Shown: piece after piece, positions 16,869-62,006 of the stretch | Layout of the letters: every line of letters starts with the position of its first letter | Numbering within the stretch: position 1 is the stretch's first letter | Notes under the pieces: generated by a model | Told to the model about the DNA's origin: nothing | Databases searched by the model: none | What the model saw: only the letters and a program-made list of their open reading frames with translations | Position numbers and translations under genes: made by a program | DNA from: a virus | DNA: 64,000 bases | Strand: one strand, 5' to 3' | Virus record (IMG/VR): IMGVR_UViG_3300044620_001883 | Span: 62,001 to 126,000 of that record

Positions 16869-17309
16869 ATGTTCAAAGCACCTCTCATCAACGCCGCCGC
16901 CAACACAAGCCCGAGCGCGCACATCAGACTCAACTACGGCACCCCAAGTGGGGAGGCCCTGCCGAGTCTGACATCCAGCCCAATGGCGGATGCGCTGCTG
17001 CGCTTTGGTCGGGCGGCTCTAATGCCCGCAGGGCGTGCTGAGACGTTTGAACCTTCAACATACCGCCTGCCGAATCTCATAGGGCGCATGAACGGCAGTT
17101 ACGGGGTGGGTGGTGAGTTCTACGCAAAGGCGCTCGGCAACGTGGAGGCAGCGCAACAGCTTGCAGCGCAGTCTCAGGCTGGTCTCATGGCCGCCGTGCA
17201 GGGCACCGGTGCCGCCCCCTACGCGCTACCGCTGTATGAAACCTTGCAGGACCCACGTTGGGGACCTGAGGCCAGCAATCTCCGCAACGCGCTTTTCCAT
17301 GCATCGTGA
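16869..17309 (+). CDS. Hypothetical protein just upstream of the RNA polymerase subunit, 146 aa
   Basis: Polar, Ala/Gly/Pro-rich start with SPSAHIRLNYGTPSGEAL. The middle contains YRLPNLIGRMNGSYGVGGEF, and the end is helical and Gln/Ala-rich. It overlaps the beta-subunit gene by 11 bases, so the two are probably translated together. It could be a small subunit or partner of the phage polymerase, but it shows no recognisable beta N-terminal motif. Confidence 0.65.
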   Translation: MFKAPLINAAANTSPSAHIRLNYGTPSGEALPSLTSSPMADALLRFGRAALMPAGRAETFEPSTYRLPNLIGRMNGSYGVGGEFYAKALGNVEAAQQLAAQSQAGLMAAVQGTGAAPYALPLYETLQDPRWGPEASNLRNALFHAS

Positions 17310-19203
17310 AGTCGTTAACGCCCAGTATGAATTGGATCGGCGCCCTGAAGAGGACGTCGATTTCGAGTTCATGTCTCCCAATCAATTCGTCGGTCCCAAT
17401 GTCGGGCTGATCCCGCTGCAGAATGCCGTCCAACCTACCCGGTTGTTCTACGGTGCCCGTTTCGCCAACCAGGCACAACCACTGGTAAAACCAGAGGCAC
17501 CATGGATCCAGACCAGCATGGATGACACGCCGGACACGTCATTTGACGACATGCTTGGCGGTACGGCCGGCGCTATCCGCTCTGACGGGGACGCCACGGT
17601 TGAGGATGTGGCGGACACACAAATCAAACTGCGACTGGCAGATGGAACTCCCAAGGTGATCGGGCTGTATCGCAACATGCCCTTCAACCGGTACAGCGGA
17701 ATCACACAGACCCCGACGGTCACGAAGGGACAGACTGTCAAAGCCAAGGACCTGCTGGCCCGTTCCAACTTCACAGACGAGAAGGGTTCCCTGGCGTTAG
17801 GCCTCAACGCCCGTGTGGGGGTTGTTCCCTTCAAGGGGTTCTCGATGGATGATGCCATGGTGGTCTCGGACAAGTTCGCAAAGCGGGCCACCAGCCTCCA
17901 TCTGGATTCCATCGACAAGGACTTTTCAGGGGGCAACCTGAAGAGCGGCCAAGACCACTTCAAGTCACTGTTCCCTGACATGTACACCAAAGATCAGCTC
18001 ACGCTGCTGGACGAGCACGGCATCGTGCGTCCAGGTCAGGTTGTACAACCGGGCGACCCTCTGATCCTGGCCACCCGTCCGCGCAACTTCAATTCAGCCC
18101 AGTCACAAAGCCTGGGGCGCTTGGGCAAGGTAGCGAGACAGCTCCGCGCGGATGCCTCTGTGCAGTGGGACAGCGCAGTGCCAGGTACCGTCACGGACGT
18201 GGTGCGCAAGAATGACGGATCTGTGAAGGTGCTGGTCGAGAGTCATCGCCCCATGCAGAAGGGCGACAAGCTTGTCCTGCGCTCGGGCCAGAAGGGGATC
18301 GTCTCAGCGGTCATCCCCGAGCATGAGATGCTCCGCACAGCGTCGGGTGAACCGCTGGAGATGCTGCTCAACCAACAGGGTCTCCCATCGCGTGCCAACC
18401 CCTCGCTGTTACTTGAGATCCTTCTTGGAAAAGTTGCAGCCAAGTCAGGCACCCCAATGAAGCTCCCGGCGTTCAATCCGAACGAGGACAGTTGGATAGA
18501 CTTTGTGGCGGCCAAGCTCAAGGAAGCAGGCATGACCGACAAGGAGACTGTGTTCGATCCCAAGGACAACCGCAAGCTGGACAGGCCGATCACAACCGGC
18601 AATGCCTACGTGTTGAAGCTGCACCACATCGCAGAGCACAAATACGACGCACGTGGGCAAGGGGGGTATGACCAGGACGGACAACCTTCGAAGGGGTCTG
18701 GCCTTGGTGGCGGCGCCAAACGTCGCTCAGGTCTCGAGACTACCGTGATGCTCAGCAGCGGCGCGTACAACAACCTCCGGGAGTCCAGCACATTGACGGG
18801 GCAGCAGAACGATGATTTCTGGCGCACCTTCAGGTCAGGGCAAACCCCCAAAGCTCCAGGCTCTCCTTTTGTGTTCCAAAAGTTCAGGGCACTTCTGAAC
18901 GGTGCTGGCATGCACGCGCGCGAAATGGGCGGCGGCAAACTTCGGTTGGGTCTCCTGACTGACAAACAGCTCGAGCAATTCAAACCCCTGAAAGTACATT
19001 CCGGTGAGACCATTGACTTCCGCACCTTGGCTCCCAAGGCAGGCGGTCTCTTCGACCCGGCATTGGTGGCCAACAAGAACTGGGGTTACATTGACCTCCC
19101 GGAGCCTATGCCGAACCCAGCCGCAGAGGACACCATTCGCCAGCTGCTTGGGATCACTCGCAAGGACTTCGAGGAAGTTCTTGCCGGTACTCGGCCGCTG
19201 TGA
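17299..19203 (+). CDS. RNA polymerase beta subunit, C-terminal half (split, phage type)
   Basis: The sequence follows bacterial RpoB from the fork/rifampicin region to the C-terminus. MSPNQFVGPNVGLIPLQNA matches the SPxQ...LIPF segment and LVKPEAPW the following RPEAP. GFSMDDAMVVSDKF matches the ED loop near the active site. GDKLVLRSGQKG carries both catalytic lysines (K324, K332, the same 8-residue spacing as E. coli K1065/K1073). LLNQQGLPSRANPS and LLGKVA follow, and then a degenerate HKYDARG...GGGAKR core-dock segment. At 634 aa only the C-terminal half is present, so the enzyme must be split, as in phiKZ-type phages. Neighbouring virion-type genes suggest a packaged polymerase. ATG 17299 (MHREVV) is chosen because homology starts there. 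Confidence 0.9.
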   Translation: MHREVVNAQYELDRRPEEDVDFEFMSPNQFVGPNVGLIPLQNAVQPTRLFYGARFANQAQPLVKPEAPWIQTSMDDTPDTSFDDMLGGTAGAIRSDGDATVEDVADTQIKLRLADGTPKVIGLYRNMPFNRYSGITQTPTVTKGQTVKAKDLLARSNFTDEKGSLALGLNARVGVVPFKGFSMDDAMVVSDKFAKRATSLHLDSIDKDFSGGNLKSGQDHFKSLFPDMYTKDQLTLLDEHGIVRPGQVVQPGDPLILATRPRNFNSAQSQSLGRLGKVARQLRADASVQWDSAVPGTVTDVVRKNDGSVKVLVESHRPMQKGDKLVLRSGQKGIVSAVIPEHEMLRTASGEPLEMLLNQQGLPSRANPSLLLEILLGKVAAKSGTPMKLPAFNPNEDSWIDFVAAKLKEAGMTDKETVFDPKDNRKLDRPITTGNAYVLKLHHIAEHKYDARGQGGYDQDGQPSKGSGLGGGAKRRSGLETTVMLSSGAYNNLRESSTLTGQQNDDFWRTFRSGQTPKAPGSPFVFQKFRALLNGAGMHAREMGGGKLRLGLLTDKQLEQFKPLKVHSGETIDFRTLAPKAGGLFDPALVANKNWGYIDLPEPMPNPAAEDTIRQLLGITRKDFEEVLAGTRPL

Positions 19204-42110: not shown

Positions 42111-42322
42111 GCACAAATCTGCACTGGTACATATGGGGTGCGAACGATCACCCCAGAAGAGTCGCCAGGTTTGCCGTTGAGGCTGAATCGGAGGAAGAAG
42201 CCAAGACGCGAGTCTGGAAACTCTACGATGATCACGACCACCGCCGTGAGACACAGCACCCCGCCAAGGTAGCTGATTCCCCGGATGCGCTGTTCGCGTG
42301 TGTACTGCACCACAGACCATGA
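42107..42322 (+). CDS. Small strand-helix module protein, 71 aa
   Basis: WYIWGANDHPRRVARFAVEA, then EEEAKTRVWKLYDDH: two strands and a Glu-rich helix, the same layout as in the proteins at 11934 and 33939. ATGA junction upstream and 4-base overlap with the methyltransferase. Confidence 0.68.
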   Translation: MSTNLHWYIWGANDHPRRVARFAVEAESEEEAKTRVWKLYDDHDHRRETQHPAKVADSPDALFACVLHHRP

Positions 42323-44337
42323 AGACTAATTACATTCACCCAGGTGTCACGACTCGGCGTCGTGAACAGGTCGTCGTACACTTTGCCGGCGGTGGGGGTT
42401 CCTGTACTGGAATCGCGAATGCATTGGGGCGCTCCCCCAACCATGCCGTCAATCACGACAGCGCCGCGCTGGGGATGCACCGGGCCAACCATCCCGGCAC
42501 GCGACACCACATCGAGGATGTCTTTGATGTGGATCCGGCGCCGATCATCCAACAGGACGGGCCTGTGGGGTTGGCATGGTTCAGTCCATCCTGTACGCAC
42601 TTCAGCAAGGCCAAGGGTGGTCAGCCCCTGGATGCCCGCATTCGTGGGCTGACGCTCGTGATGCTGCGCTGGGCCAAGGCGGGTACGCGGTTGATGTTCA
42701 TGGAGAACGTCGAGGAGATCCGAACCTGGGGACCCTTGGTCAAGATGGTTAAGAACAAGATTCCCGGATGGTATCCGGACCCGCAGGCACGCGGGCGCAC
42801 CTGGCAGGCTTTCCTGGACTGCATGGGGGACGGGATATCACCCGACCATCCTGACTTACCGTTCTTCGCGGAGGTGCTGGCTGGGCAGGTGCATGTCGAC
42901 GAGATGATCAAGGGCTTCGGGTACAAGTTCGAGGCCCGTGAGTTGAGGGCTTGTGACTACGGAACCCCCACGATCCGTAAGCGTCTTTACGCTGTGTTCC
43001 GGAATGACGGGCGCCCAATCGTGTGGCCCAACCCCACGCATGCGGACCCTGCAACCCTACAGCCTGGGGACACCCGCAGGCCGTGGCATACCATGGCCGA
43101 ATGCGTCGACTGGGAGCGTCCCTGTCCTTCCATCTTCCTGCGCGGACAGGCGGCCAAGAAGGCACGGTGCAAGCGCCCTCTTGCGGACGCGACACTGGCC
43201 CGCATTGCCCGCGGGATCGACAAGTACGTGCTGAACAATACCAGACCATTCATTGTCTCGCTGACCCACCAGGGTGGTGACAGGGTCGAGAGCATCGACC
43301 TCCCGGCAAACACCATCACGGCAGCGCACCGGGGCGAGAAGGCTCTCGTGAGTGCAGTCGTGACCGAGTGTGCCAATGCCAGCTCAAAGCGGAACATGCC
43401 CGTAGATGAGCCAATGCGGACAGCCTGTGCGCATGTCAAGGGCGGACACTTCGCCCTGGTAACTGCCAGCGTGATGACAAACACGACAGGGCACAGCGGT
43501 GCGGATGCCCAAGCACCGTTACCCACAATCGCCACTGGCGGGCATCATGCCCTCGTTGCAACCAGTATGGTCAAACTGAGGGGTACCAACACCGGCGACG
43601 CCGTGGACACCCCCATGCACACCGCCAGCGCCGGGGGCACCCATCACGGACTCGTGGCGGCCTCCCTGGTCCAGACTGGCTACGGTGAGCGGGAAGGGCA
43701 GGAGCCTCGTGCTCTGGACATCGAGAAGCCACTGGGGACCGTGGTAGCTGGCGGCGGCAAGCATGCTCTCGTAGCCGCCTACGTGGCCCAGCACAACGGT
43801 GGCTTCAATGTCGTGGACGGGAAGCCGCTGGACAGCCCGGTATCTACCATCAACACCACCGGCAGCCAGCAAACCCTCGTGGCTGCCTCCGTGATGGCCT
43901 ACTACGGCACCGAAGCCGACGGGCAACATGTCAATGATCCCGCCCGCACCGTCACGACCAAATCCAGGATGGGGTTGGTCAACAGCGAGTTGGTGCCGAC
44001 CATGACTGAAGCGACCCGCCGGGACGCGCTTCGGGTAGCCAAGTTCCTCCGGTCCTACGGGGTTGAGTTCGAGGGTGAGTTCGCGACTGTCCAAGGTCTG
44101 GCCATCGTGGATATCGGACTCAGGATGTTTACACCCCGCGAGCTCTTCCGTGCATCTGGTTTTCCCGAGGGGTACATTATCAACCAGGCGATCTACCGGG
44201 AACCCACAACAGGTATGACGGTCGTCCGGGAGCTGACCAAGGAAGAGCAGATCCGGATGTGTGGTAACGCTGTGTGCCCTCCGGTCGCGGAGGCGCTTGT
44301 GCGCAGCAACGCTCCCGAGATGGTACACGCAGGATGA
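42319..44337 (+). CDS. C5-cytosine DNA methyltransferase with an expanded repeat region, 672 aa
   Basis: Transfers a methyl group from S-adenosylmethionine to cytosine C5 in DNA. Motif I VVHFAGGGGSCTG binds the cofactor. Motif IV reads FSPSCTHFSKAKGG with nucleophile C92 (PSC rather than PPC). Motif VI is MENVEEI. Motif VIII-like TIRKRLYAVF, and at the C-terminus LFRASGFPEGYII and RMCGNAVCPPVAEALV (motifs IX-X), complete the core. The region at 43.3-44.0 kb, where the target-recognition domain lies, is a series of seven related 32-39-residue modules, each with an x-LV-x-A segment. This large subfamily is known in proteobacterial phages. No matching nuclease is nearby, so anti-restriction is the likely role. 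Confidence 0.93.
   Translation: MKTNYIHPGVTTRRREQVVVHFAGGGGSCTGIANALGRSPNHAVNHDSAALGMHRANHPGTRHHIEDVFDVDPAPIIQQDGPVGLAWFSPSCTHFSKAKGGQPLDARIRGLTLVMLRWAKAGTRLMFMENVEEIRTWGPLVKMVKNKIPGWYPDPQARGRTWQAFLDCMGDGISPDHPDLPFFAEVLAGQVHVDEMIKGFGYKFEARELRACDYGTPTIRKRLYAVFRNDGRPIVWPNPTHADPATLQPGDTRRPWHTMAECVDWERPCPSIFLRGQAAKKARCKRPLADATLARIARGIDKYVLNNTRPFIVSLTHQGGDRVESIDLPANTITAAHRGEKALVSAVVTECANASSKRNMPVDEPMRTACAHVKGGHFALVTASVMTNTTGHSGADAQAPLPTIATGGHHALVATSMVKLRGTNTGDAVDTPMHTASAGGTHHGLVAASLVQTGYGEREGQEPRALDIEKPLGTVVAGGGKHALVAAYVAQHNGGFNVVDGKPLDSPVSTINTTGSQQTLVAASVMAYYGTEADGQHVNDPARTVTTKSRMGLVNSELVPTMTEATRRDALRVAKFLRSYGVEFEGEFATVQGLAIVDIGLRMFTPRELFRASGFPEGYIINQAIYREPTTGMTVVRELTKEEQIRMCGNAVCPPVAEALVRSNAPEMVHAG
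43336..43990 (+). repeat. Seven diverged protein modules within the methyltransferase
   Basis: Segments KALVSA, FALVTA, HALVAT, HGLVAA, HALVAA, QTLVAA, MGLVNS begin near 43339, 43450, 43545, 43644, 43761, 43871 and 43969. They are spaced about 32-39 residues, each preceded by a D-P-T-type segment. The DNA has diverged, so the repeats are seen mainly at protein level. Confidence 0.75.
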
Positions 44338-47106: not shown

Positions 47107-47287
47107 ACGTCCACAGCACAGGGGCATCCCCATGGGGCGCATGGAACGACCAATCGACCCGCGTCCGATTGTCCACCAACCCACGCCCCGCGAAGTAGAT
47201 GAACACACACCTATTGAGGTGCGTAGAAGCGAAGTGGGGATGATCAACCTGCTGGAATCCAGGGGATACCGGATACGTCATGATTGA
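47090..47287 (+). CDS. Small basic Pro-rich protein, 65 aa
   Basis: Basic and Pro-rich (RENKRPQHRGIPMGRMERP), probably disordered, with a short helical end. Overlaps the microprotein by 17 bases and the PP-loop gene by 8, so it probably belongs to the same translational unit. No family recognised. Confidence 0.65.
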   Translation: MSRENKRPQHRGIPMGRMERPIDPRPIVHQPTPREVDEHTPIEVRRSEVGMINLLESRGYRIRHD

Positions 47288-48089
47288 CCACATGCCTGAC
47301 CTGGCCTGCTATGACTGGATCGTGGTAAACAGCAGCGGGGGCAAGGACAGCCAGACGGCCCTGGAGGGCATTGTCCGGGCGGCGGACCGGCAGAGTGTGG
47401 ACCGATCCAGGATCGTCGTGAACCACCAGTGTCTCGGTGCCCAAGAGTGGCCCGGGACGCTGGATCTGGTGCGGCGCCAGGCAGCCCACTACGGACTGCG
47501 GGTCGAGGTGGCTTCCTACCGGGACAAGGACGGTGCAGCCCCCACGCTCCTGGACTACGTTCGGAAGCGGGGCAAGTGGCCCTCCAGCAAGCAGCGATTC
47601 TGCACCAGCGAGTTCAAGCGCGGCCCTGGTGGTCGTGTCCTGACCAAGCTGGCACGTGAAGTGCAAGGACCGTGCAAGATCCTGAGTGTCTTCGGGTTCC
47701 GGGCCGAGGAGTCTGCGGCGCGGGCCAAGCGGCAGCGCTTCTCTCTCAACACCCGCCACTCGACGAATACCCGGCAGGTCTGGGATTACCTGCCCATCCA
47801 TGACTGGACTGAGGAGCAGGTCTGGCAGGATATAAAAACTTCTGGCGTCCCTTATCATACAGTGTACGATCAGGGTATGAAGCGGCTGAGCTGTACGTAC
47901 TGCATCTTCGCACCCCGCAATGCACTCCTGACTGCCGCGTACTTGCGACCGGACATGTTGCAAGAGTACGTGGACTTGGAGCGGGAGATCGGGCATGATT
48001 TCCAGCACAACAAACCGATACGGTTGATCCAGGAGGCTATGTTGGCCGGCGAGAAACCCAAAGAGGACACAGAAAAATGGCGTATGTAG
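47280..48089 (+). CDS. PP-loop ATPase, PAPS-reductase-like, 269 aa
   Basis: The PP-loop SSGGKDS (S18-S24) binds ATP or the adenylyl part of the substrate. The fold continues with RIVVNHQCLG and a helix. Cysteine motifs RFCTSEFKR and RLSCTYCIFAP sit where phage and DndC-type members place their sulfur- or cluster-binding cysteines. Such enzymes act in sulfate reduction, tRNA thiolation or DNA phosphorothioation. With no DndA/D/E partners visible, the reaction here is unknown. 269 residues is the usual length. A second PP-loop protein lies at 60825. Confidence 0.85.
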   Translation: MIDHMPDLACYDWIVVNSSGGKDSQTALEGIVRAADRQSVDRSRIVVNHQCLGAQEWPGTLDLVRRQAAHYGLRVEVASYRDKDGAAPTLLDYVRKRGKWPSSKQRFCTSEFKRGPGGRVLTKLAREVQGPCKILSVFGFRAEESAARAKRQRFSLNTRHSTNTRQVWDYLPIHDWTEEQVWQDIKTSGVPYHTVYDQGMKRLSCTYCIFAPRNALLTAAYLRPDMLQEYVDLEREIGHDFQHNKPIRLIQEAMLAGEKPKEDTEKWRM

Positions 48090-52929: not shown

Positions 52930-53226
52930 ATGACAAGCATTGAGGAAAAAATTGCAAACAAGTTACTACGCCGTGGTAACTGGCACGGGCTGCTCGAACT
53001 GCAGGTTGTACAGGTTGTCTACAAGGGCTGGTGGTGGAACCGCCGGCAGGTTGGGTACCAGGCAGTGGTGACCAACTGGGAACTGATGTATGAACGCTCC
53101 GGTGTACATGCAACTCCGCTGGAGGCCGTTACGGCGGTTGTGGGGCAGATCATCAGTGAAGACGACATGGACATCTGCCTGGAATTTGAGCAGGAAATTG
53201 ACCAGGAGGATACTGCCAGATCATGA
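52930..53226 (+). CDS. Small hypothetical protein, 98 aa
   Basis: Helical start ([19 protein letters not shown]), strands [17 protein letters not shown] and [10 protein letters not shown], then a helix and acidic end. Lies next to the acyl carrier protein fusion with a 4-base overlap. No family recognised. Confidence 0.7.
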
Positions 53227-53720
53227 CGCTCGAGACCACGACACTCTACACATTACGGTTACATCTGCGGCCGTTCTACGCCGCAGGGCTGACGTTTGAG
53301 CAGGTCGCCAGCCTGATCACCAATATCGAGATCGAAGGCAAGAGACTGACTTGCACGCGTGTGGCACATGGCCCTTTCGTGGATGTCCCATTTTCTCCGC
53401 ACAGTCTTGAGCGGGCAATAACGTGGCGAATCGGTGACGCTCTGAATGGTGCCCTTGCTGATCGCATGGCGTCCGCGCGGATACCGAACCTGCGGGAAAG
53501 AGTCTACGCGATCATTGCAGAGCAGCTGGCACTCGACGTTGTACTGGGGGACACACCAGTCAAGGATCTGGGGGCTGACTCGCTGGACGTCGTTGAACTG
53601 GAGATGGCCTTCGAGGAAGAATTCGGTGTCGAGATCCCCACCTACCAGTTCAGTATTACAAGCACCCCACAGGACTTCGCAAGGTGGTTACGGGTGAACG
53701 CGCCGGAGGACTACGCATGA
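53223..53720 (+). CDS. Protein with a C-terminal acyl carrier protein domain, 165 aa
   Basis: Residues about 90-160 are a clear acyl carrier protein: [12 protein letters not shown], then [20 protein letters not shown] and [11 protein letters not shown]120 in GADSLD is the residue that takes the 4'-phosphopantetheine arm. The first 85 residues are unrelated to ACP ([39 protein letters not shown]), and I recognise no family. ACPs carry acyl chains in fatty acid, lipid A and natural-product synthesis, and bind host proteins. This one could be charged by host AcpS and divert acyl groups, or compete with host ACP for its partners (inference). No synthase or acyltransferase is seen nearby. Confidence 0.88.
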
Positions 53721-54818: not shown

Positions 54819-55273
54819 GCATCCTCCACTCACTGTTTCCCGGTGGTGCTCCTGAGTTCATGCGTAAGCACAAGACATTCGTCAAAGAGCTGAAGGACAC
54901 CCAGGCTGAGCGGATCTGCAAAGGAACCGTAGAGGGTTGCGAGGTTGTGACTGAACCGTACTACACGGACCGTCGCCACGACCGAGCACACCTGAAGATT
55001 GACGGGGAATCAGCAGGTATTGAGTGGACCAGTATTCCGTGGAGTTGCTTCAAGCCAATCACGGTCTCGTACTGGATGTACATTGACTACTTGGCACGTG
55101 ACCACGCCCTGGCTCTGCTGAAACGTGCCGGTGTTGAGGATGGGTGGGTCCAGGAGGACCCGTATGCAGATCCGGTGCGCTGGGGTGTCCACACGGAATC
55201 AATCGAGAGTGCCGTCAAAGTCTGGAAAGAGTACAAAACATGTTCCAAGAAGGACTCTCAAGCGCAGGAATGA
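54815..55273 (+). CDS. Hypothetical protein, 152 aa
   Basis: Helical start (EFMRKHKTFVKELKDTQAER), strand-rich centre (AHLKIDGESAGIEWTSIPWS), then a helical end rich in Lys. Its last 16 bases overlap the end of the HNH gene, which runs towards it on the other strand. Confidence 0.72.
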   Translation: MSILHSLFPGGAPEFMRKHKTFVKELKDTQAERICKGTVEGCEVVTEPYYTDRRHDRAHLKIDGESAGIEWTSIPWSCFKPITVSYWMYIDYLARDHALALLKRAGVEDGWVQEDPYADPVRWGVHTESIESAVKVWKEYKTCSKKDSQAQE

Positions 55274-56112
55274 GCATAGGCTCGGCGTAACCAATCCAGG
55301 AAGTCTGCTACAGACAGGCTGGCTTTAGCCACGTTGCACGTGCGACAGCAGGTCACCGCATTTTCTACGTTGTAGCCATTCGCATTGTCGCGTCGGTCTA
55401 CGCCATTATAGTAACCATGGGCTAGTGAGGGGTCATCTATGATTTTGCCGGAGGCACAACCAGGCAACCAGCCGCAGTACGCGCATGGTGCTTGTACTAG
55501 TTTCATGAATGTCGTCTTGTCTAAATCGAATGGTAATCCCCGACGTACAGCGTTGCCTTTATAGCGATGCAACAGGATGTTACCGGCCAATACCGGTACG
55601 TCTCGATTTTTGCGTCTTCGCTTTGCTGTTTTTTCTTGCGTTCGTTTCGTACTCTCAATCATTAGACAACCGCAGCTGCGTACAGGCTGAAGTGTCGAAC
55701 GTAGCTTGGTTCCGAATTTCGTAACGGTCTTTCCGCAACTGCAGGAGCAAACCCAACGACGCGCTTTGGGTTTGTTCTTTCCTTCCGGTTGGCTATCAGC
55801 TGCTGCGATAACGGTCAGTCGTCCGAATACTTTGCCGAGCATATCCGCACCTGTGGACCTTTTTCTACAGCCACAACTGCCATGCAGGCCTAGCTGCCTA
55901 GTCTGAATTAGCTGCACGTTTGTACGTGTGAATGTTTTACCGCAGACACATCGGCAATTCCATACGTGATTGCCGATGTGTTTCAGTACAGTGGAATGCC
56001 CAATCTCTATGTTTGTGAAATCTATAAGCTTGCTCATATGGCGTAAACTTACGCTGCGGTTGTTGACTTTCAATAGTGGGTATTTGATTTGTGGTCTATA
56101 CAGCTTTAGCAT
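55258..56112 (-). CDS. HNH homing-type endonuclease, 284 aa
   Basis: Read on the - strand from ATG at 56112-56110. Two zinc knuckles precede the nuclease: CRCVCGKTF...SCGCRKR and CSCSCGKTV...SCGCL, a paired CxCxCG/SCGC arrangement found in phage HNH endonucleases. The catalytic part reads CAYCGWLPGC, YNGVDRRDNANGYNVENA, CCRTCNVAK, giving HNH-type zinc and metal positions. It is AT-richer than its neighbours. It lies between two + genes without breaking either, typical of a free-standing mobile endonuclease. It ends 16 bases inside one neighbour and starts 3 bases before the next gene. Confidence 0.88.
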   Translation of the reverse strand: MLKLYRPQIKYPLLKVNNRSVSLRHMSKLIDFTNIEIGHSTVLKHIGNHVWNCRCVCGKTFTRTNVQLIQTRQLGLHGSCGCRKRSTGADMLGKVFGRLTVIAAADSQPEGKNKPKARRWVCSCSCGKTVTKFGTKLRSTLQPVRSCGCLMIESTKRTQEKTAKRRRKNRDVPVLAGNILLHRYKGNAVRRGLPFDLDKTTFMKLVQAPCAYCGWLPGCASGKIIDDPSLAHGYYNGVDRRDNANGYNVENAVTCCRTCNVAKASLSVADFLDWLRRAYAHSCA

Positions 56113-58299: not shown

Positions 58300-58675
58300 G
58301 GTTGTTCCAGTTCTGCCGTTCAAGATTCTCAGCTCCGAGGTGGTTCCAGGTAAGAATAGCCATGTTACTTGTCTGCGTACGGTTCTACAGGACGCAGCGG
58401 ACAACCAGTGGGTCTTTGACCCGTCGGTGTTGAACATCGAGCTGAAACCATACGTGGAACCGCGTGGGCGTTACTGGCTATTGGACGCTGGTGACGAACA
58501 TCAGGGTCCTGTGTACAGGTCTGTCGAAGATGGGCAACGGCATCCAGGTTGCTACAACTGTGGACTACCCCTGCGTGAGCATCGCGAGAGCAGTACAGGT
58601 AAACGTCGTGGTTGTCCTCCTGACTATGAAGCCATCCTGAAAGAAATCTTGGTTGACCCGCCAGTGCATGAGTAA
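58292..58675 (+). CDS. Hypothetical protein with a Cys pair, 127 aa
   Basis: ATG 58292 (MSEVVPVLPF). Strand-rich; later CYNCGLPLREHRESSTGKRR and GCPPDYE give CxxC, His and Cys in a row. This resembles a small C-terminal zinc finger seen in phage proteins (recalled). Overlaps the GHKL gene by 8 bases. Confidence 0.7.
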   Translation: MSEVVPVLPFKILSSEVVPGKNSHVTCLRTVLQDAADNQWVFDPSVLNIELKPYVEPRGRYWLLDAGDEHQGPVYRSVEDGQRHPGCYNCGLPLREHRESSTGKRRGCPPDYEAILKEILVDPPVHE

Positions 58676-60434
58676 AACAAACACCACAGAACGGCGTAGC
58701 CTCAAGGCTCACGCGGATTTGATCCTGCAGGTAATCAAACGACAGGCTGGAACGTTGGCCAAGGCCGTCATGGAGGGTGTCATGAATGCCATCGATGCCG
58801 GTGCGACCACCATCCAGATTCAGCTCAAGCCAGACCGATTGATCATCACTGACAATGGCAAGGGCTTCGATTCGGCGGATCACATCAAGGATGTCTTTGA
58901 GGTGTTCGGCTCCCCACATGAGATGAACGAGGAAGGTATCTCGGTCGATGCCAAGTTCGGCACGTACCGGATCGGGCGTGGGCAGCTGTTTGCCTTTGGG
59001 GTGAACGAGTGGAAGTCCAACACGTTCAAAATGACGACGGACATCAATGGTCTGGGGTTGGCGTATGACCTGTCAGTCGGACAGTCCCCGCGGCTCGGGT
59101 GCGAGATCACGGTGCAGCTTTACGAAAAGCTGTCCATGCGGGACGTCCAGCAAACCACCGACGAGGTGACGAAGCTGTGTCGTTATGTCATCCCCACCCT
59201 GACCGTCAACGGTGTCAACATCGCCAGGGATCCGGCAGGCATGAAGTGGGACGTCGTCACCGACGACGCCTACATCAGCAAGAAGGTCAGCGAATCCCGC
59301 TGGCGTTACGGTTCCGGCCTGGATGTGTACCAGCAGGGGGTGTTTGTGGAGACCATCCCGGCATCCGAGTATGGCCTGGAGGGGACGATTGTGATCAAGC
59401 AGGCCGTGCAGGTGAACTTTGCCCGCAACCAGGTCATCCGCAGCTGCAAGCGCTGGAAGAAGATTGCCGCGTTGCTTCGTGACACAGGCACCAAGGATGC
59501 CGTCCAGAAGGTCAAGCTGGACGTGCATAAGGCCCGCAGCTTCATCCAGAACTTCGTCAGCAAGGATATCGATTACCAGACATTCAGGAATGTTCAGTGC
59601 CTGCCGGATGTACGGGGGCGCATGTGGTCGATGGATCAGCTGGACAAGTTGTCGCGTTCCAAGTCCTCTACGAGTCCCGTGTACGCGAATGCGCTGGGGC
59701 ATATCCCAGTGGGGTTCGGGCCCAGGAATTGTCGAGACGGGGACCGCGTCATCCAGAATGGTAAAGCGCTCGTGCTGGATGCGGTGTTGTTCCAGTACTT
59801 GGGGTTGTCCGACCAGCTTAGCGCGGCAGAATGCGGCGCGGCGGCTCTGGACATCATCCAGGGTGGCGGAACCAAGATCTTGACCTGGGTGGCTTATCAA
59901 ACCCTGGTAGAGGACAGCTCGGGTGACTATGAGCTGGTCCAGCAGAACAAGCTGACACCACAGGAGCAGGATATCATCAGTTCGTCGGCACACATTCTGG
60001 GTAACATGGCACGAACGCTCGGTGTCAGGAACCGCAAGCTCTGTCTGGGAAACAAGGCGAATGCTGAGGGTTGGACGGACGGCGCCACCTATGTGGCGAT
60101 ATCCAGGACCTGGCTGAAGGGTCTGCGCCTGGGCTACGAGCGGGATTGGCATGCGTTGACTCTGCTGCTCGCCCACGAGATGTGTCACGACGGTCAGGAC
60201 ACTGACACGCACAATCACACACCACAGTTCTATGAGGACTACCATGAGCTTACCCGGCGGGTACCTGTCTGGGCGCGCTGGGGGTACCAGCTGTATCGGA
60301 AGTACATGAACTCACGGCTTAGAAAACTGCCCAAGCAGATACAGGATCAGTTATTCATCGAGTCAGAAGCGGTCGTGTTGGCTGAGCTAGCGTACATCCA
60401 AGAACCAGTACCAGTGACAAAGAAAGCAGCATGA
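58668..60434 (+). CDS. GHKL ATPase joined to an HExxH metallopeptidase domain, 588 aa
   Basis: N-terminal ATPase of the GHKL (Hsp90/MutL/histidine kinase) fold: N-box E36-GVM-N40-AIDAG, G1 box TDNGKGF (D62, N63, G64, G66), then FGTYRIGRGQLFAFG as the G2/lid region. A middle transducer-like section runs to about residue 440, including NFARNQVIRSCKRW. The C-terminus has LLAHEMCHDGQDTDTHNH (H503, E504, H507, with H515 and H517 nearby), an HExxH zinc motif like metallopeptidases, followed by a helical end. The enzyme could use ATP-driven conformational change to control proteolysis; the substrate is unknown. MORC-, Hsp90- or defence-like activity is possible but inferred. Not a standard MutL or gyrase. 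Confidence 0.82.
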   Translation: MSKTNTTERRSLKAHADLILQVIKRQAGTLAKAVMEGVMNAIDAGATTIQIQLKPDRLIITDNGKGFDSADHIKDVFEVFGSPHEMNEEGISVDAKFGTYRIGRGQLFAFGVNEWKSNTFKMTTDINGLGLAYDLSVGQSPRLGCEITVQLYEKLSMRDVQQTTDEVTKLCRYVIPTLTVNGVNIARDPAGMKWDVVTDDAYISKKVSESRWRYGSGLDVYQQGVFVETIPASEYGLEGTIVIKQAVQVNFARNQVIRSCKRWKKIAALLRDTGTKDAVQKVKLDVHKARSFIQNFVSKDIDYQTFRNVQCLPDVRGRMWSMDQLDKLSRSKSSTSPVYANALGHIPVGFGPRNCRDGDRVIQNGKALVLDAVLFQYLGLSDQLSAAECGAAALDIIQGGGTKILTWVAYQTLVEDSSGDYELVQQNKLTPQEQDIISSSAHILGNMARTLGVRNRKLCLGNKANAEGWTDGATYVAISRTWLKGLRLGYERDWHALTLLLAHEMCHDGQDTDTHNHTPQFYEDYHELTRRVPVWARWGYQLYRKYMNSRLRKLPKQIQDQLFIESEAVVLAELAYIQEPVPVTKKAA

Positions 60435-60832
60435 TCAACAGTACAAAGTACAAGATAGCAAAGACCATCCGGGAGTACCGGGTGAACTACAATGGGTGGG
60501 ATTTACTCATTCCGGTTGGTTCCACGGTCGCGAACAAGACAGCCGGCGGGAACAATGACGCGTACCGGTTCCTGCAGGGTACTAATGAGTTTGCAAAGCT
60601 GGTGACGGGATACCCAAACTCCATTCTGGCCCATGACCTGACCCACTGCGGGCTGAACATCCCGGCTGAGTACTGCGAACCCTGGCCTGAGGAAGTCATG
60701 CCTGTGACACCGGATGAAGATGCTACCCAGTCCCTGGTACGGGACTGGCAGTACGAGGTTGCCAATGGTGACACCGTGCTAGGACTGGTTGAGTGGCGTA
60801 AGCACAAACAAGAGAGTGAAGACCGTGAGTGA
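60431..60832 (+). CDS. Hypothetical protein, 133 aa
   Basis: ATGA junction after the GHKL gene and an 8-base overlap with the PP-loop gene. Contains ILAHDLTHCGLNIPAEYCEP, an AHD-HYG-type segment I recall in small phage proteins, with His and Cys that might bind a metal. No function known. Confidence 0.7.
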   Translation: MINSTKYKIAKTIREYRVNYNGWDLLIPVGSTVANKTAGGNNDAYRFLQGTNEFAKLVTGYPNSILAHDLTHCGLNIPAEYCEPWPEEVMPVTPDEDATQSLVRDWQYEVANGDTVLGLVEWRKHKQESEDRE

Positions 60833-62006
60833 AACGATCATCATACCCGCGCCGGAAGCTCCGTCGCCTTTAATGCTCGCCTACGGGCTTGGCGTGGATT
60901 CGACGGCCGTCCTAGTCGGACTACAGCAACAGGGCATCCGCCCCGACGCGATCCTGTTTGCCGACACGAAATCGGAGAAGCGCGAAACTTACGCGTACCT
61001 GCCCGTCATCCAGGAGTGGTTGAAGAAGGTGGACTTCCCACCTGTGACGGTCGTGGAATACCGGGTCAAGAACTTCAAGCACTGGCCCCCGTATCGAGGG
61101 CTGGGCGAGAACTGCCTGACCAATGGGACACTGCCGAGCTTGGCCTTTGGGTTCAAGTCGTGCTCGCTCAAGTGGAAGGTGCAACCCCAGAATGCATGGA
61201 CGGACGAATGGCAGCCCGCCATCGACTGCTGGGCCGCCGGTGGTCGCGTCCGGAAGATGATCGGGTACGACAACGGCGCCAAGGACCGGAAGCGGTACAG
61301 CCACGCCGTGGGGGTTGAGGATCCCAAGTACGACTACTGGTATCCCCTGATCGACTGGGGTCTGGACCGCGAAGGCTGCAAGGAATTGATCCGGTCAGCG
61401 GGACTCCCGGTGCCACCCAAGAGTGCCTGCTACTTCTGTCCTGCGACTCAGCCGGCGGAATTGCACGAGCACCGCAAGGAATACCTGCGAAACATTGTCA
61501 TCATGGAGGCCAGGGCCAAGCCCCGCCTCGACGGGTGCAAGACCCAGGAGTTGCTCGACCAGGAATGGCGTGAGCGTGAAGACAAGTGGTTCGCGAAAGC
61601 GGAAGCGGATTACGCGCTGGCACGAGACATCCTGGACCTTGCTCGTACTTCGGTGTTTCTGCCGCCTGCGTTTGCGGACATGGACGCCTTTGAGGCGTTT
61701 CTGAAGACCAGACCCAAGCGGCGCCTGGCAGGTTCCGGGACGGCCGGGCTGTGGCGTAGTGCCACCAAGACTCGGCCGGCCATGATGACGGACTACATCC
61801 GCGATCACAACCTCCTGCCTGCAGATGAGATCAAGACGCTGCAGGGCCGCGCACCTCAGGAGATCGTGGACACCATCCAGGCCTTCGCGAACGGGGAGGA
61901 CATCCTGAACTGGCACGACTTCCTGGAACAGTTCTCACCCGAGGATGCTCTGGACGAACTGCCCGGTGGTTGTGCTGGGTGTGATGCTATTGACCGATCT
62001 GTATGA
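60825..62006 (+). CDS. PP-loop ATPase, PAPS-reductase superfamily, 393 aa
   Basis: The loop is AYGLGVDSTAVLVGL, a divergent SGGxDS (GLGVDST), followed by AILFADTKSEK. KSCSLKWKV and ACYFCPATQPAELHE hold the paired cysteines typical of phage PP-loop proteins in this group. The remaining helical part (KYLRNIVIMEARAKPR, KTRPKRRLAGSGTAG) exceeds the normal PAPS reductase, so length and motifs suggest a distinct subfamily. GTG 60825 (MSETIII) is chosen; GTG 60816 and TTG 60789 are alternatives. Possible roles include base or tRNA modification, but the substrate is unknown. Confidence 0.8.
   Translation: MSETIIIPAPEAPSPLMLAYGLGVDSTAVLVGLQQQGIRPDAILFADTKSEKRETYAYLPVIQEWLKKVDFPPVTVVEYRVKNFKHWPPYRGLGENCLTNGTLPSLAFGFKSCSLKWKVQPQNAWTDEWQPAIDCWAAGGRVRKMIGYDNGAKDRKRYSHAVGVEDPKYDYWYPLIDWGLDREGCKELIRSAGLPVPPKSACYFCPATQPAELHEHRKEYLRNIVIMEARAKPRLDGCKTQELLDQEWREREDKWFAKAEADYALARDILDLARTSVFLPPAFADMDAFEAFLKTRPKRRLAGSGTAGLWRSATKTRPAMMTDYIRDHNLLPADEIKTLQGRAPQEIVDTIQAFANGEDILNWHDFLEQFSPEDALDELPGGCAGCDAIDRSV

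What the first reader, a model, noticed from the sequence alone, without database searches (positions are those of the whole stretch)
58668..60434. GHKL ATPase fused to an HExxH metallopeptidase
One polypeptide has complete GHKL boxes and a zinc-peptidase motif (H503/E504/H507). This pairing is unlike standard MutL, Hsp90 or gyrase and recalls switchable effectors in defence. It is followed closely by a small His-rich protein and a PP-loop enzyme, so these three may form a module.
Basis: partly seen in the sequence, partly recalled or inferred. Interest (0 to 1): 0.72.

Follow-up and report, generated by a model that had tools for sequence, protein, structure and literature searches.

The report
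Hsp90-like ATPase fused to metalloprotease
A large bacterial virus carries a protein that joins an ATP-driven clamp like the Hsp90 chaperone to a zinc protease like those that clear proteins stuck on DNA; it belongs to a widespread, undescribed family on plasmids, conjugative elements and phages, where it often sits beside DNA-processing genes.

Summary
The fusion is real: window 58668-60434 encodes 588 aa with intact GHKL boxes (E36/N40/D43, D62-G64-G66, G98-G103-Q106) and H503-E504-x-x-H507. It is not a one-off. Relatives occur in 200 plasmid records, 63 genome loci and 25 viral loci, and 64 of 67 dereplicated full-length members keep HExxH plus a third His (H517). Residues 1-424 are not merely 'GHKL': model and profile match the Hsp90/HtpG N-terminal plus middle domains, including the catalytic-Arg motif. 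Residues 425-548 model confidently as a zincin (minigluzincin), closest by profile to SprT/Wss1. So the Hsp90 dimerisation domain is replaced by a SprT-type metallopeptidase. Pfam and NCBIfam describe no such family and I found no paper on it. In relatives it sits beside topoisomerase III, SSB, conjugation genes or DNA ligase, not in defence islands. My best reading is an ATP-gated protease acting on proteins bound or stuck to the element's DNA; that function is inferred. The nearest phage relatives (41-45% identity) have lost every zinc ligand but kept the ATPase, so proteolysis cannot be the family's only function.

The parts
58668..60434 (+). 588-aa protein: Hsp90-type ATPase module fused to a SprT/Wss1-like metallopeptidase domain
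58668..59132 (+). GHKL (Bergerat) ATPase domain, residues 1-155
   Evidence: Pfam HATPase_c_3 E 9.7e-9; model
58773..58796 (+). N box E36-G-V-M-N40-A-I-D43 (catalytic base and Mg/ATP residues)
   Evidence: E36, N40, D43 invariant in 57 members
58851..58865 (+). G1 box D62-N-G-K-G66
   Evidence: D62, G64, G66 invariant
58959..58985 (+). G2 box / ATP lid G98-T-Y-R-I-G103-R-G-Q106
   Evidence: G98, G103, R104, Q106 invariant
59253..59939 (+). Hsp90-middle-like region, residues 196-424
   Evidence: hhalign to HtpG middle domain in register; Foldseek to TRAP1/Hsp90
59424..59426 (+). R253 in VNFARN, aligned with the Arg of the Hsp90 LNVSRE motif
   Evidence: R253 invariant; alignment
59940..60311 (+). 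C-terminal zincin domain, residues 425-548
   Evidence: AlphaFold2 pLDDT 95.1; Foldseek to HtpX/selecase/jannalysin; profile to SprT/Wss1
60174..60188 (+). H503-E504-M-C-H507 zinc/catalytic motif
   Evidence: invariant in the 54-member alignment of zinc-bearing C-termini
60216..60218 (+). H517, probable third zinc ligand (HExxH-x9-H)
   Evidence: invariant in A3; aligns with the SprT and YgjP third His
60243..60245 (+). H526, near-invariant, role unknown (possible substrate or transition-state residue)
   Evidence: 90% or more conserved
60431..60832 (+). neighbour: 133-aa protein of unknown function, overlapping stop/start; not His-rich and not conserved with the ATPase
60825..62006 (+). neighbour: PP-loop / PAPS-reductase-like enzyme (GTG start 60825); co-occurrence not conserved
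   Evidence: PHROG 424 E 3.4e-18

Best explanation
The protein is an Hsp90-type ATPase (ATP-binding N domain plus middle domain with the catalytic-arginine loop) whose C-terminal dimerisation domain is replaced by a SprT/Wss1-like zincin metallopeptidase. SHOWN by sequence and model: the two-part architecture, intact ATPase residues, an intact HExxH...H site, and conservation of the fusion across phages, plasmids and integrated elements. INFERRED: ATP binding closes the Hsp90-like module on a client and so presents it to, or uncovers, the protease site. The clients are probably proteins bound or covalently stuck to the element's DNA (topoisomerase III or relaxase adducts on conjugative elements; replication or host proteins on jumbo-phage DNA). 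The family would be an element-encoded, ATP-gated DNA-protein-crosslink or DNA-bound-protein protease. The sister clade that lost the zinc site would keep only the clamp/unfoldase part.
For: Architecture: the model of P0001 has pLDDT 89.5 and all 50 listed Foldseek PDB hits are Hsp90/TRAP1 (best E 6.4e-16). The N+M profile against an Hsp90 profile gives probability 98.1, E 9.1e-14, 340 columns; middle region alone E 0.0012, reversed control 0.017. P0001 GLDVYQQGVFVE...VQVNFARNQV aligns with HtpG HGLKLYVQRVFIMD...LPLNVSREIL. Protease: domain model pLDDT 95.1; Foldseek to HtpX and selecase, probability 1.00 and 0.96; the top four profile hits among PDB sequences are Wss1, SPRTN (twice) and proabylysin (weak E 0.18-0.64); hhalign to a SprT profile 65%, E 6e-5, and YgjP 40%, against under 0.5% for reversed controls. 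Motif in 64 of 67 members. DNA link: a type IA topoisomerase gene lies within the roughly 6-kb flanks of 20 loci, 4 bp away in three and under 300 bp in several, and topB is 10 bp upstream in a Xanthomonas plasmid. SSB is near in 10 loci and directly downstream in a Pseudomonas plasmid; a VirD4-type gene is near in several; an ArdC-like gene is near in a haloarchaeal plasmid; NAD-dependent DNA ligase is near in 10 viral loci. Precedent: human SPRTN removes trapped topoisomerase III-alpha from DNA (PMC10079683).
Against: No activity of any kind has been shown for the family. Topo III, SSB and T4SS genes are ordinary backbone genes of such elements, so adjacency may only reflect shared location, and the window's own gene has no such neighbour. 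No DNA-binding domain was identified. The nearest phage relatives (L080-L082) lack all zinc ligands, so proteolysis is dispensable at least there. Assignment to SprT rather than another minigluzincin is weak: P0001 has no Pfam hit for this domain, and the SprT-like model matches only 4 of 54 members.
Confidence: 0.42

Rival explanations
1. Counter-defence factor of invading DNA, working like ArdC: the protein binds or remodels host restriction or other defence complexes, and its peptidase part may be dispensable.
For: ArdC of plasmid R388 also ends in a zincin domain, protects incoming DNA, and does not need its protease activity (PMC7213743), which fits the zinc-less sister clade. The family is carried by invading elements. 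An ArdC-like gene is close by in one plasmid. DNA methyltransferase genes lie near in some loci (cluster with L080-L082).
Against: No ArdC-N or other known antirestriction domain. The third zinc ligand is His, not Glu. In several elements it sits in the conjugation or topoisomerase block rather than clearly in a leading-region antirestriction block.
Confidence: 0.25
2. Host-protein or virion-protein processing protease with a built-in chaperone: it refolds or cleaves phage or host proteins during infection or assembly, with no DNA role.
For: The N+M module is Hsp90-like. Jumbo phages are reported to carry other zincin peptidases thought to process virion proteins or attack host proteins (PMC7824862).
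Against: Most relatives are on plasmids and integrated elements that make no virions. Phage members lie near DNA ligase, not structural genes.
Confidence: 0.15
3. Defence effector: an ATP-gated protease switched on by phage infection, forming a module with the small protein and the PP-loop enzyme.
For: GHKL/Hsp90-like ATPases do occur in defence systems (weak MzaB, TmtA and REase_II partial matches). Inter-element competition cannot be excluded.
Against: PADLOC matches cover only the ATPase core. The two neighbours are not conserved. The gene travels with conjugation and replication genes. PP-loop genes near other members are few and of different subfamilies.
Confidence: 0.08
4. The HExxH part is a structural remnant: the protein is only an Hsp90-like clamp and the domain is a zinc-stabilised fold without catalysis.
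For: Sister phages keep the domain with every ligand replaced.
Against: The catalytic Glu504, not needed for zinc binding, is as conserved as the ligands: invariant in 54 of 54 zinc-bearing members.
Confidence: 0.1

Closest known systems
Hsp90 / HtpG / TRAP1
   Same: N-terminal Bergerat ATPase, middle-domain order, and Arg in an N-x-[SA]-R loop aligned with LNVSRE; 340 aligned columns at E 9e-14; Foldseek E 6e-16.
   Different: No C-terminal dimerisation domain (a zincin sits there); no Pfam HSP90 match; N box closer to MutL in sequence.
SprT / SPRTN / Wss1 (WLM) / YgjP and minigluzincins (proabylysin, selecase)
   Same: Strand then HExxH helix and a third His followed by an aromatic-bearing helix; best profile hits and similar fold.
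   Different: Below Pfam cut-offs; no Cys at all after residue 506, so no SprT zinc ribbon; own conserved signature WTDG...HExxH...H-x3-F-Y-x3-H-D; fused to an ATPase.
ArdC antirestriction protein
   Same: C-terminal zincin carried by conjugative plasmids.
   Different: N-terminal ssDNA-binding domain instead of an ATPase; Glu as third ligand (PMC7213743).
T4 rIIA
   Same: Phage protein with N-terminal GHKL domain and variable C-terminus (PMC7824862).
   Different: Only 76 columns of the GHKL core align (probability 31%); no HExxH in T4 rIIA.
MutL / MORC
   Same: GHKL N box; closest PDB sequence hits are PMS2 and MutL.
   Different: Alignment stops after 48 columns; no MutL C-terminal match.

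Membership tests
GHKL ATPase superfamily | N (ExxxNxxD), G1 (DxGxG) and G2 (GxxGxG-like) boxes | tested here: met
   Invariant in 57 members; Pfam HATPase_c_3 over cut-off
Hsp90 | N-terminal ATPase followed by middle domain with catalytic Arg loop | tested here: met
Hsp90 | C-terminal dimerisation domain | tested here: not met
   Residues 425-548 are a zincin
Hsp90 | Pfam HSP90 (PF00183) match | tested here: not met
   No match in any of 13 members up to E 5
SprT/Wss1-type metallopeptidase | HExxH plus third His ligand in the following segment | tested here: met
   H503, E504, H507, H517 invariant; 64 of 67
SprT/Wss1-type metallopeptidase | Zincin fold | tested here: met
   Model pLDDT 95.1; HtpX/selecase/jannalysin hits
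SprT/Wss1-type metallopeptidase | Pfam SprT-like, WLM or YgjP score over cut-off | tested here: not met
   Only weak matches in a few members, none for P0001
SprT/Wss1-type metallopeptidase | DNA-activated protease activity | not testable with these tools
   needs an assay
ArdC | ArdC N-terminal ssDNA-binding domain | tested here: not met
   No such Pfam match
T4 rIIA | Homology beyond the GHKL core | tested here: not met
   76 columns only
Known anti-phage defence systems | PADLOC family match over most of the protein | tested here: not met
   Partial weak matches to ATPase core only

The most novel reading that the evidence does not exclude
A new class of mobile-element protease in which an Hsp90-type ATP clamp feeds DNA-bound or DNA-crosslinked proteins into a covalently attached SprT-type protease: a single-chain chaperone-protease for clearing topoisomerase, relaxase or host adducts from phage and plasmid DNA, in which some phages later discarded the protease site and kept the clamp.
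Probability: 0.3. Interest if true: 0.82.

Novelty: new variant of a known kind. Interest (0 to 1): 0.62.

Why it matters
Hsp90 chaperones and SprT/Wss1 proteases are both intensively studied, and a natural fusion of the two would be a direct model of how an ATP-driven clamp hands a substrate to a protease. The family is spread over Pseudomonadota, Bacillota, Deinococcota, several MAG-only phyla, haloarchaeal plasmids and jumbo phages, annotated only as 'ATP-binding protein', so one characterised member would annotate hundreds. If it clears DNA-protein crosslinks, it would show that conjugative elements and phages bring their own crosslink-repair protease.

Tried and rejected
(1) A three-gene module with the 133-aa protein and PP-loop enzyme: phmmer in all fetched loci found the neighbours only in the near-identical contig L079, plus one weak hit each in L086 (PP-loop, E 5e-4) and L023 (small protein, E 7e-5); PP-loop proteins near other members are few and of different subfamilies. 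(2) Membership in T4 rIIA, MutL or MORC. (3) Defence annotation by PADLOC. (4) Foldseek on the full model mostly reports the ATPase half, so the C-terminus was modelled and searched separately. (5) Terminase_6N and SU10_MCP searches to confirm phage identity found nothing (the latter rang in no control either); phage-like RNA polymerase beta, DNA polymerase, ligase and helicases were found instead. (6) Full-text searches for GHKL plus zincin and HATPase plus SprT gave one and no paper; the one describes the two domains in separate proteins. (7) The polyvalent-protein survey does not mention GHKL or Hsp90.

Full report
OBSERVATION. The ORF 58668-60434 (+) encodes a 588-aa protein (P0001). The window lies at 62001-126000 of a 200-kb viral record that encodes phage-like RNA polymerase beta, DNA polymerase and helicases and an NAD-dependent ligase, so a jumbo phage is the likely owner, although no terminase or capsid gene was identified. 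GHKL boxes and H503/E504/H507 are present as described.

FAMILY. tblastn found 200 plasmid records but only two GenBank phage records. Profile-guided scans found 63 loci in bacterial and archaeal genomes and 25 in viral contigs. The scans depend on short sequence patterns, so these are lower bounds. Pfam and NCBIfam recognise only the ATPase core, and PHROGs only a partial match. After dereplication at 80% identity, 64 of 67 full-length members carry HExxH, a third His, F/Y and a further His in fixed spacing. The exceptions are informative. L099 keeps HExxH and the third His but lacks the last His. The phages closest to P0001 (L080 at 45%; L081/L082 at 41-42%) have every ligand replaced in frame (AKLYAY for HEMCHD) while the ATPase boxes stay intact. 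In the tree P0001 is sister to those three (100/100), and the next group (L016, L103) has the intact motif, so the loss is derived in the sister lineage. Two shorter matches (L070, L077) also lack the motif.

ATPASE HALF. The AlphaFold2 model of the whole protein has mean pLDDT 89.5. All 50 listed Foldseek matches in the PDB are Hsp90 or TRAP1, best E 6.4e-16; the TM-score is only about 0.41 and the rmsd is large, so this is a domain-order match rather than a rigid superposition. Profile comparison of residues 1-424 with an Hsp90 profile built here gives probability 98.1, E 9.1e-14 over 340 columns. The middle region alone is weak (E 0.0012; reversed control 0.017) but stays in the same register. 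The invariant R253 (VNFARN) aligns with the Arg of HtpG LNVSRE; that this Arg contacts the ATP gamma-phosphate in Hsp90 is established knowledge, recalled and not tested here. By sequence the N box alone is nearer MutL/PMS2, and T4 rIIA aligns only over the GHKL core.

PEPTIDASE HALF. Residues 425-548 model alone at pLDDT 95.1. Foldseek returns gluzincins: HtpX (probability 1.00), selecase (0.96) and jannalysin (0.84), with modest E-values as expected for a small domain. A profile of 54 members against PDB sequences ranks Wss1, SPRTN twice and proabylysin as the top four, each individually weak (E 0.18-0.64). Profile-profile comparison with SprT gives 65% and E 5.9e-5, aligning the strand before the helix, HExxH and the third His; YgjP gives 40%; reversed controls stay under 0.5%. 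H503, E504, H507, H517 and F521 are invariant in that set. Zinc binding and activity are inferred, not shown.

SURROUNDINGS. In the window, neighbouring genes overlap and run in one direction, which is ordinary for a phage. The 133-aa protein (3 His) and the PP-loop enzyme are not conserved with the family. Elsewhere the neighbours are DNA-processing genes: type IA topoisomerase in 20 loci, 4 bp away in three and 10 bp in a Xanthomonas plasmid; SSB in 10 loci, directly downstream in a Pseudomonas plasmid; VirB/VirD4 genes in P. syringae plasmids; DNA ligase near 10 phage members. These loci are partly related to each other and no background rate was measured, so this is suggestive only.

MECHANISM. 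Best reading: ATP binding drives closure of the Hsp90-like module, which holds a protein substrate for the attached protease; the DNA-processing neighbours and the SprT/Wss1 resemblance point to proteins bound or crosslinked to element DNA. A direct precedent for the enzyme pair is human SPRTN, which removes trapped type IA topoisomerase III-alpha (PMC10079683). The main rival is an ArdC-like antirestriction role, in which the zincin fold is present but its activity is dispensable (PMC7213743); the zinc-less sister phages fit this rival at least as well. Defence is the least supported.

KNOWN OR NEW. Both halves are known folds, and fold-level membership is strong for each. Neither half passes the membership test for the named families (no Pfam HSP90 or SprT score over cut-off; no Hsp90 C-domain). 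I found no description of the fusion: a full-text search for GHKL plus zincin returned one paper, which treats them as separate proteins, and the polyvalent-protein survey mentions neither GHKL nor Hsp90. I rate it a new variant of a known kind.

Noticed in passing
L080, L081, L082 (sister phages), C-terminal 150 residues: Closest phage relatives keep the ATPase but have all zinc ligands replaced in frame: a pseudo-peptidase branch of the same family.
   Followed up: partly
window 53223-53720 (+): Phage gene ending in an acyl-carrier-protein domain (Pfam PP-binding E 7e-11) after an unassigned N-terminal half; unusual for a phage.
   Followed up: no
window 17110-19203 (+); L148:13844-16831: Pieces of a multi-subunit RNA polymerase beta subunit (Pfam Rpb2_6 E 1e-58; PHROG matches), as in phiKZ-like jumbo phages.
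   Followed up: no
window 47280-48089 and 60825-62006 (+): Two PP-loop/PAPS-reductase-like genes in one phage window.
   Followed up: no
window 55258-56112 (-): Gene on the opposite strand to its neighbours; by eye a Cys/His-rich HNH-type (homing endonuclease-like) protein, but no Pfam match.
   Followed up: no
window 42298-44337 (+): Large DNA methyltransferase with a long insertion (PHROG 116, residues 18-675 of the protein over 203-493 of the profile).
   Followed up: no
L004:5042-8112 (Acinetobacter phage MD-2021a): A diverged member of this family lies about 160 bp after a gene annotated as a YfgC-like peptidase.
   Followed up: no
L147:4344-7046: A 901-aa protein of the same phage has a central segment shared with minor head proteins, DarB-like antirestriction proteins and other giant phage proteins, possibly a polyvalent virion protein.
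   Followed up: no
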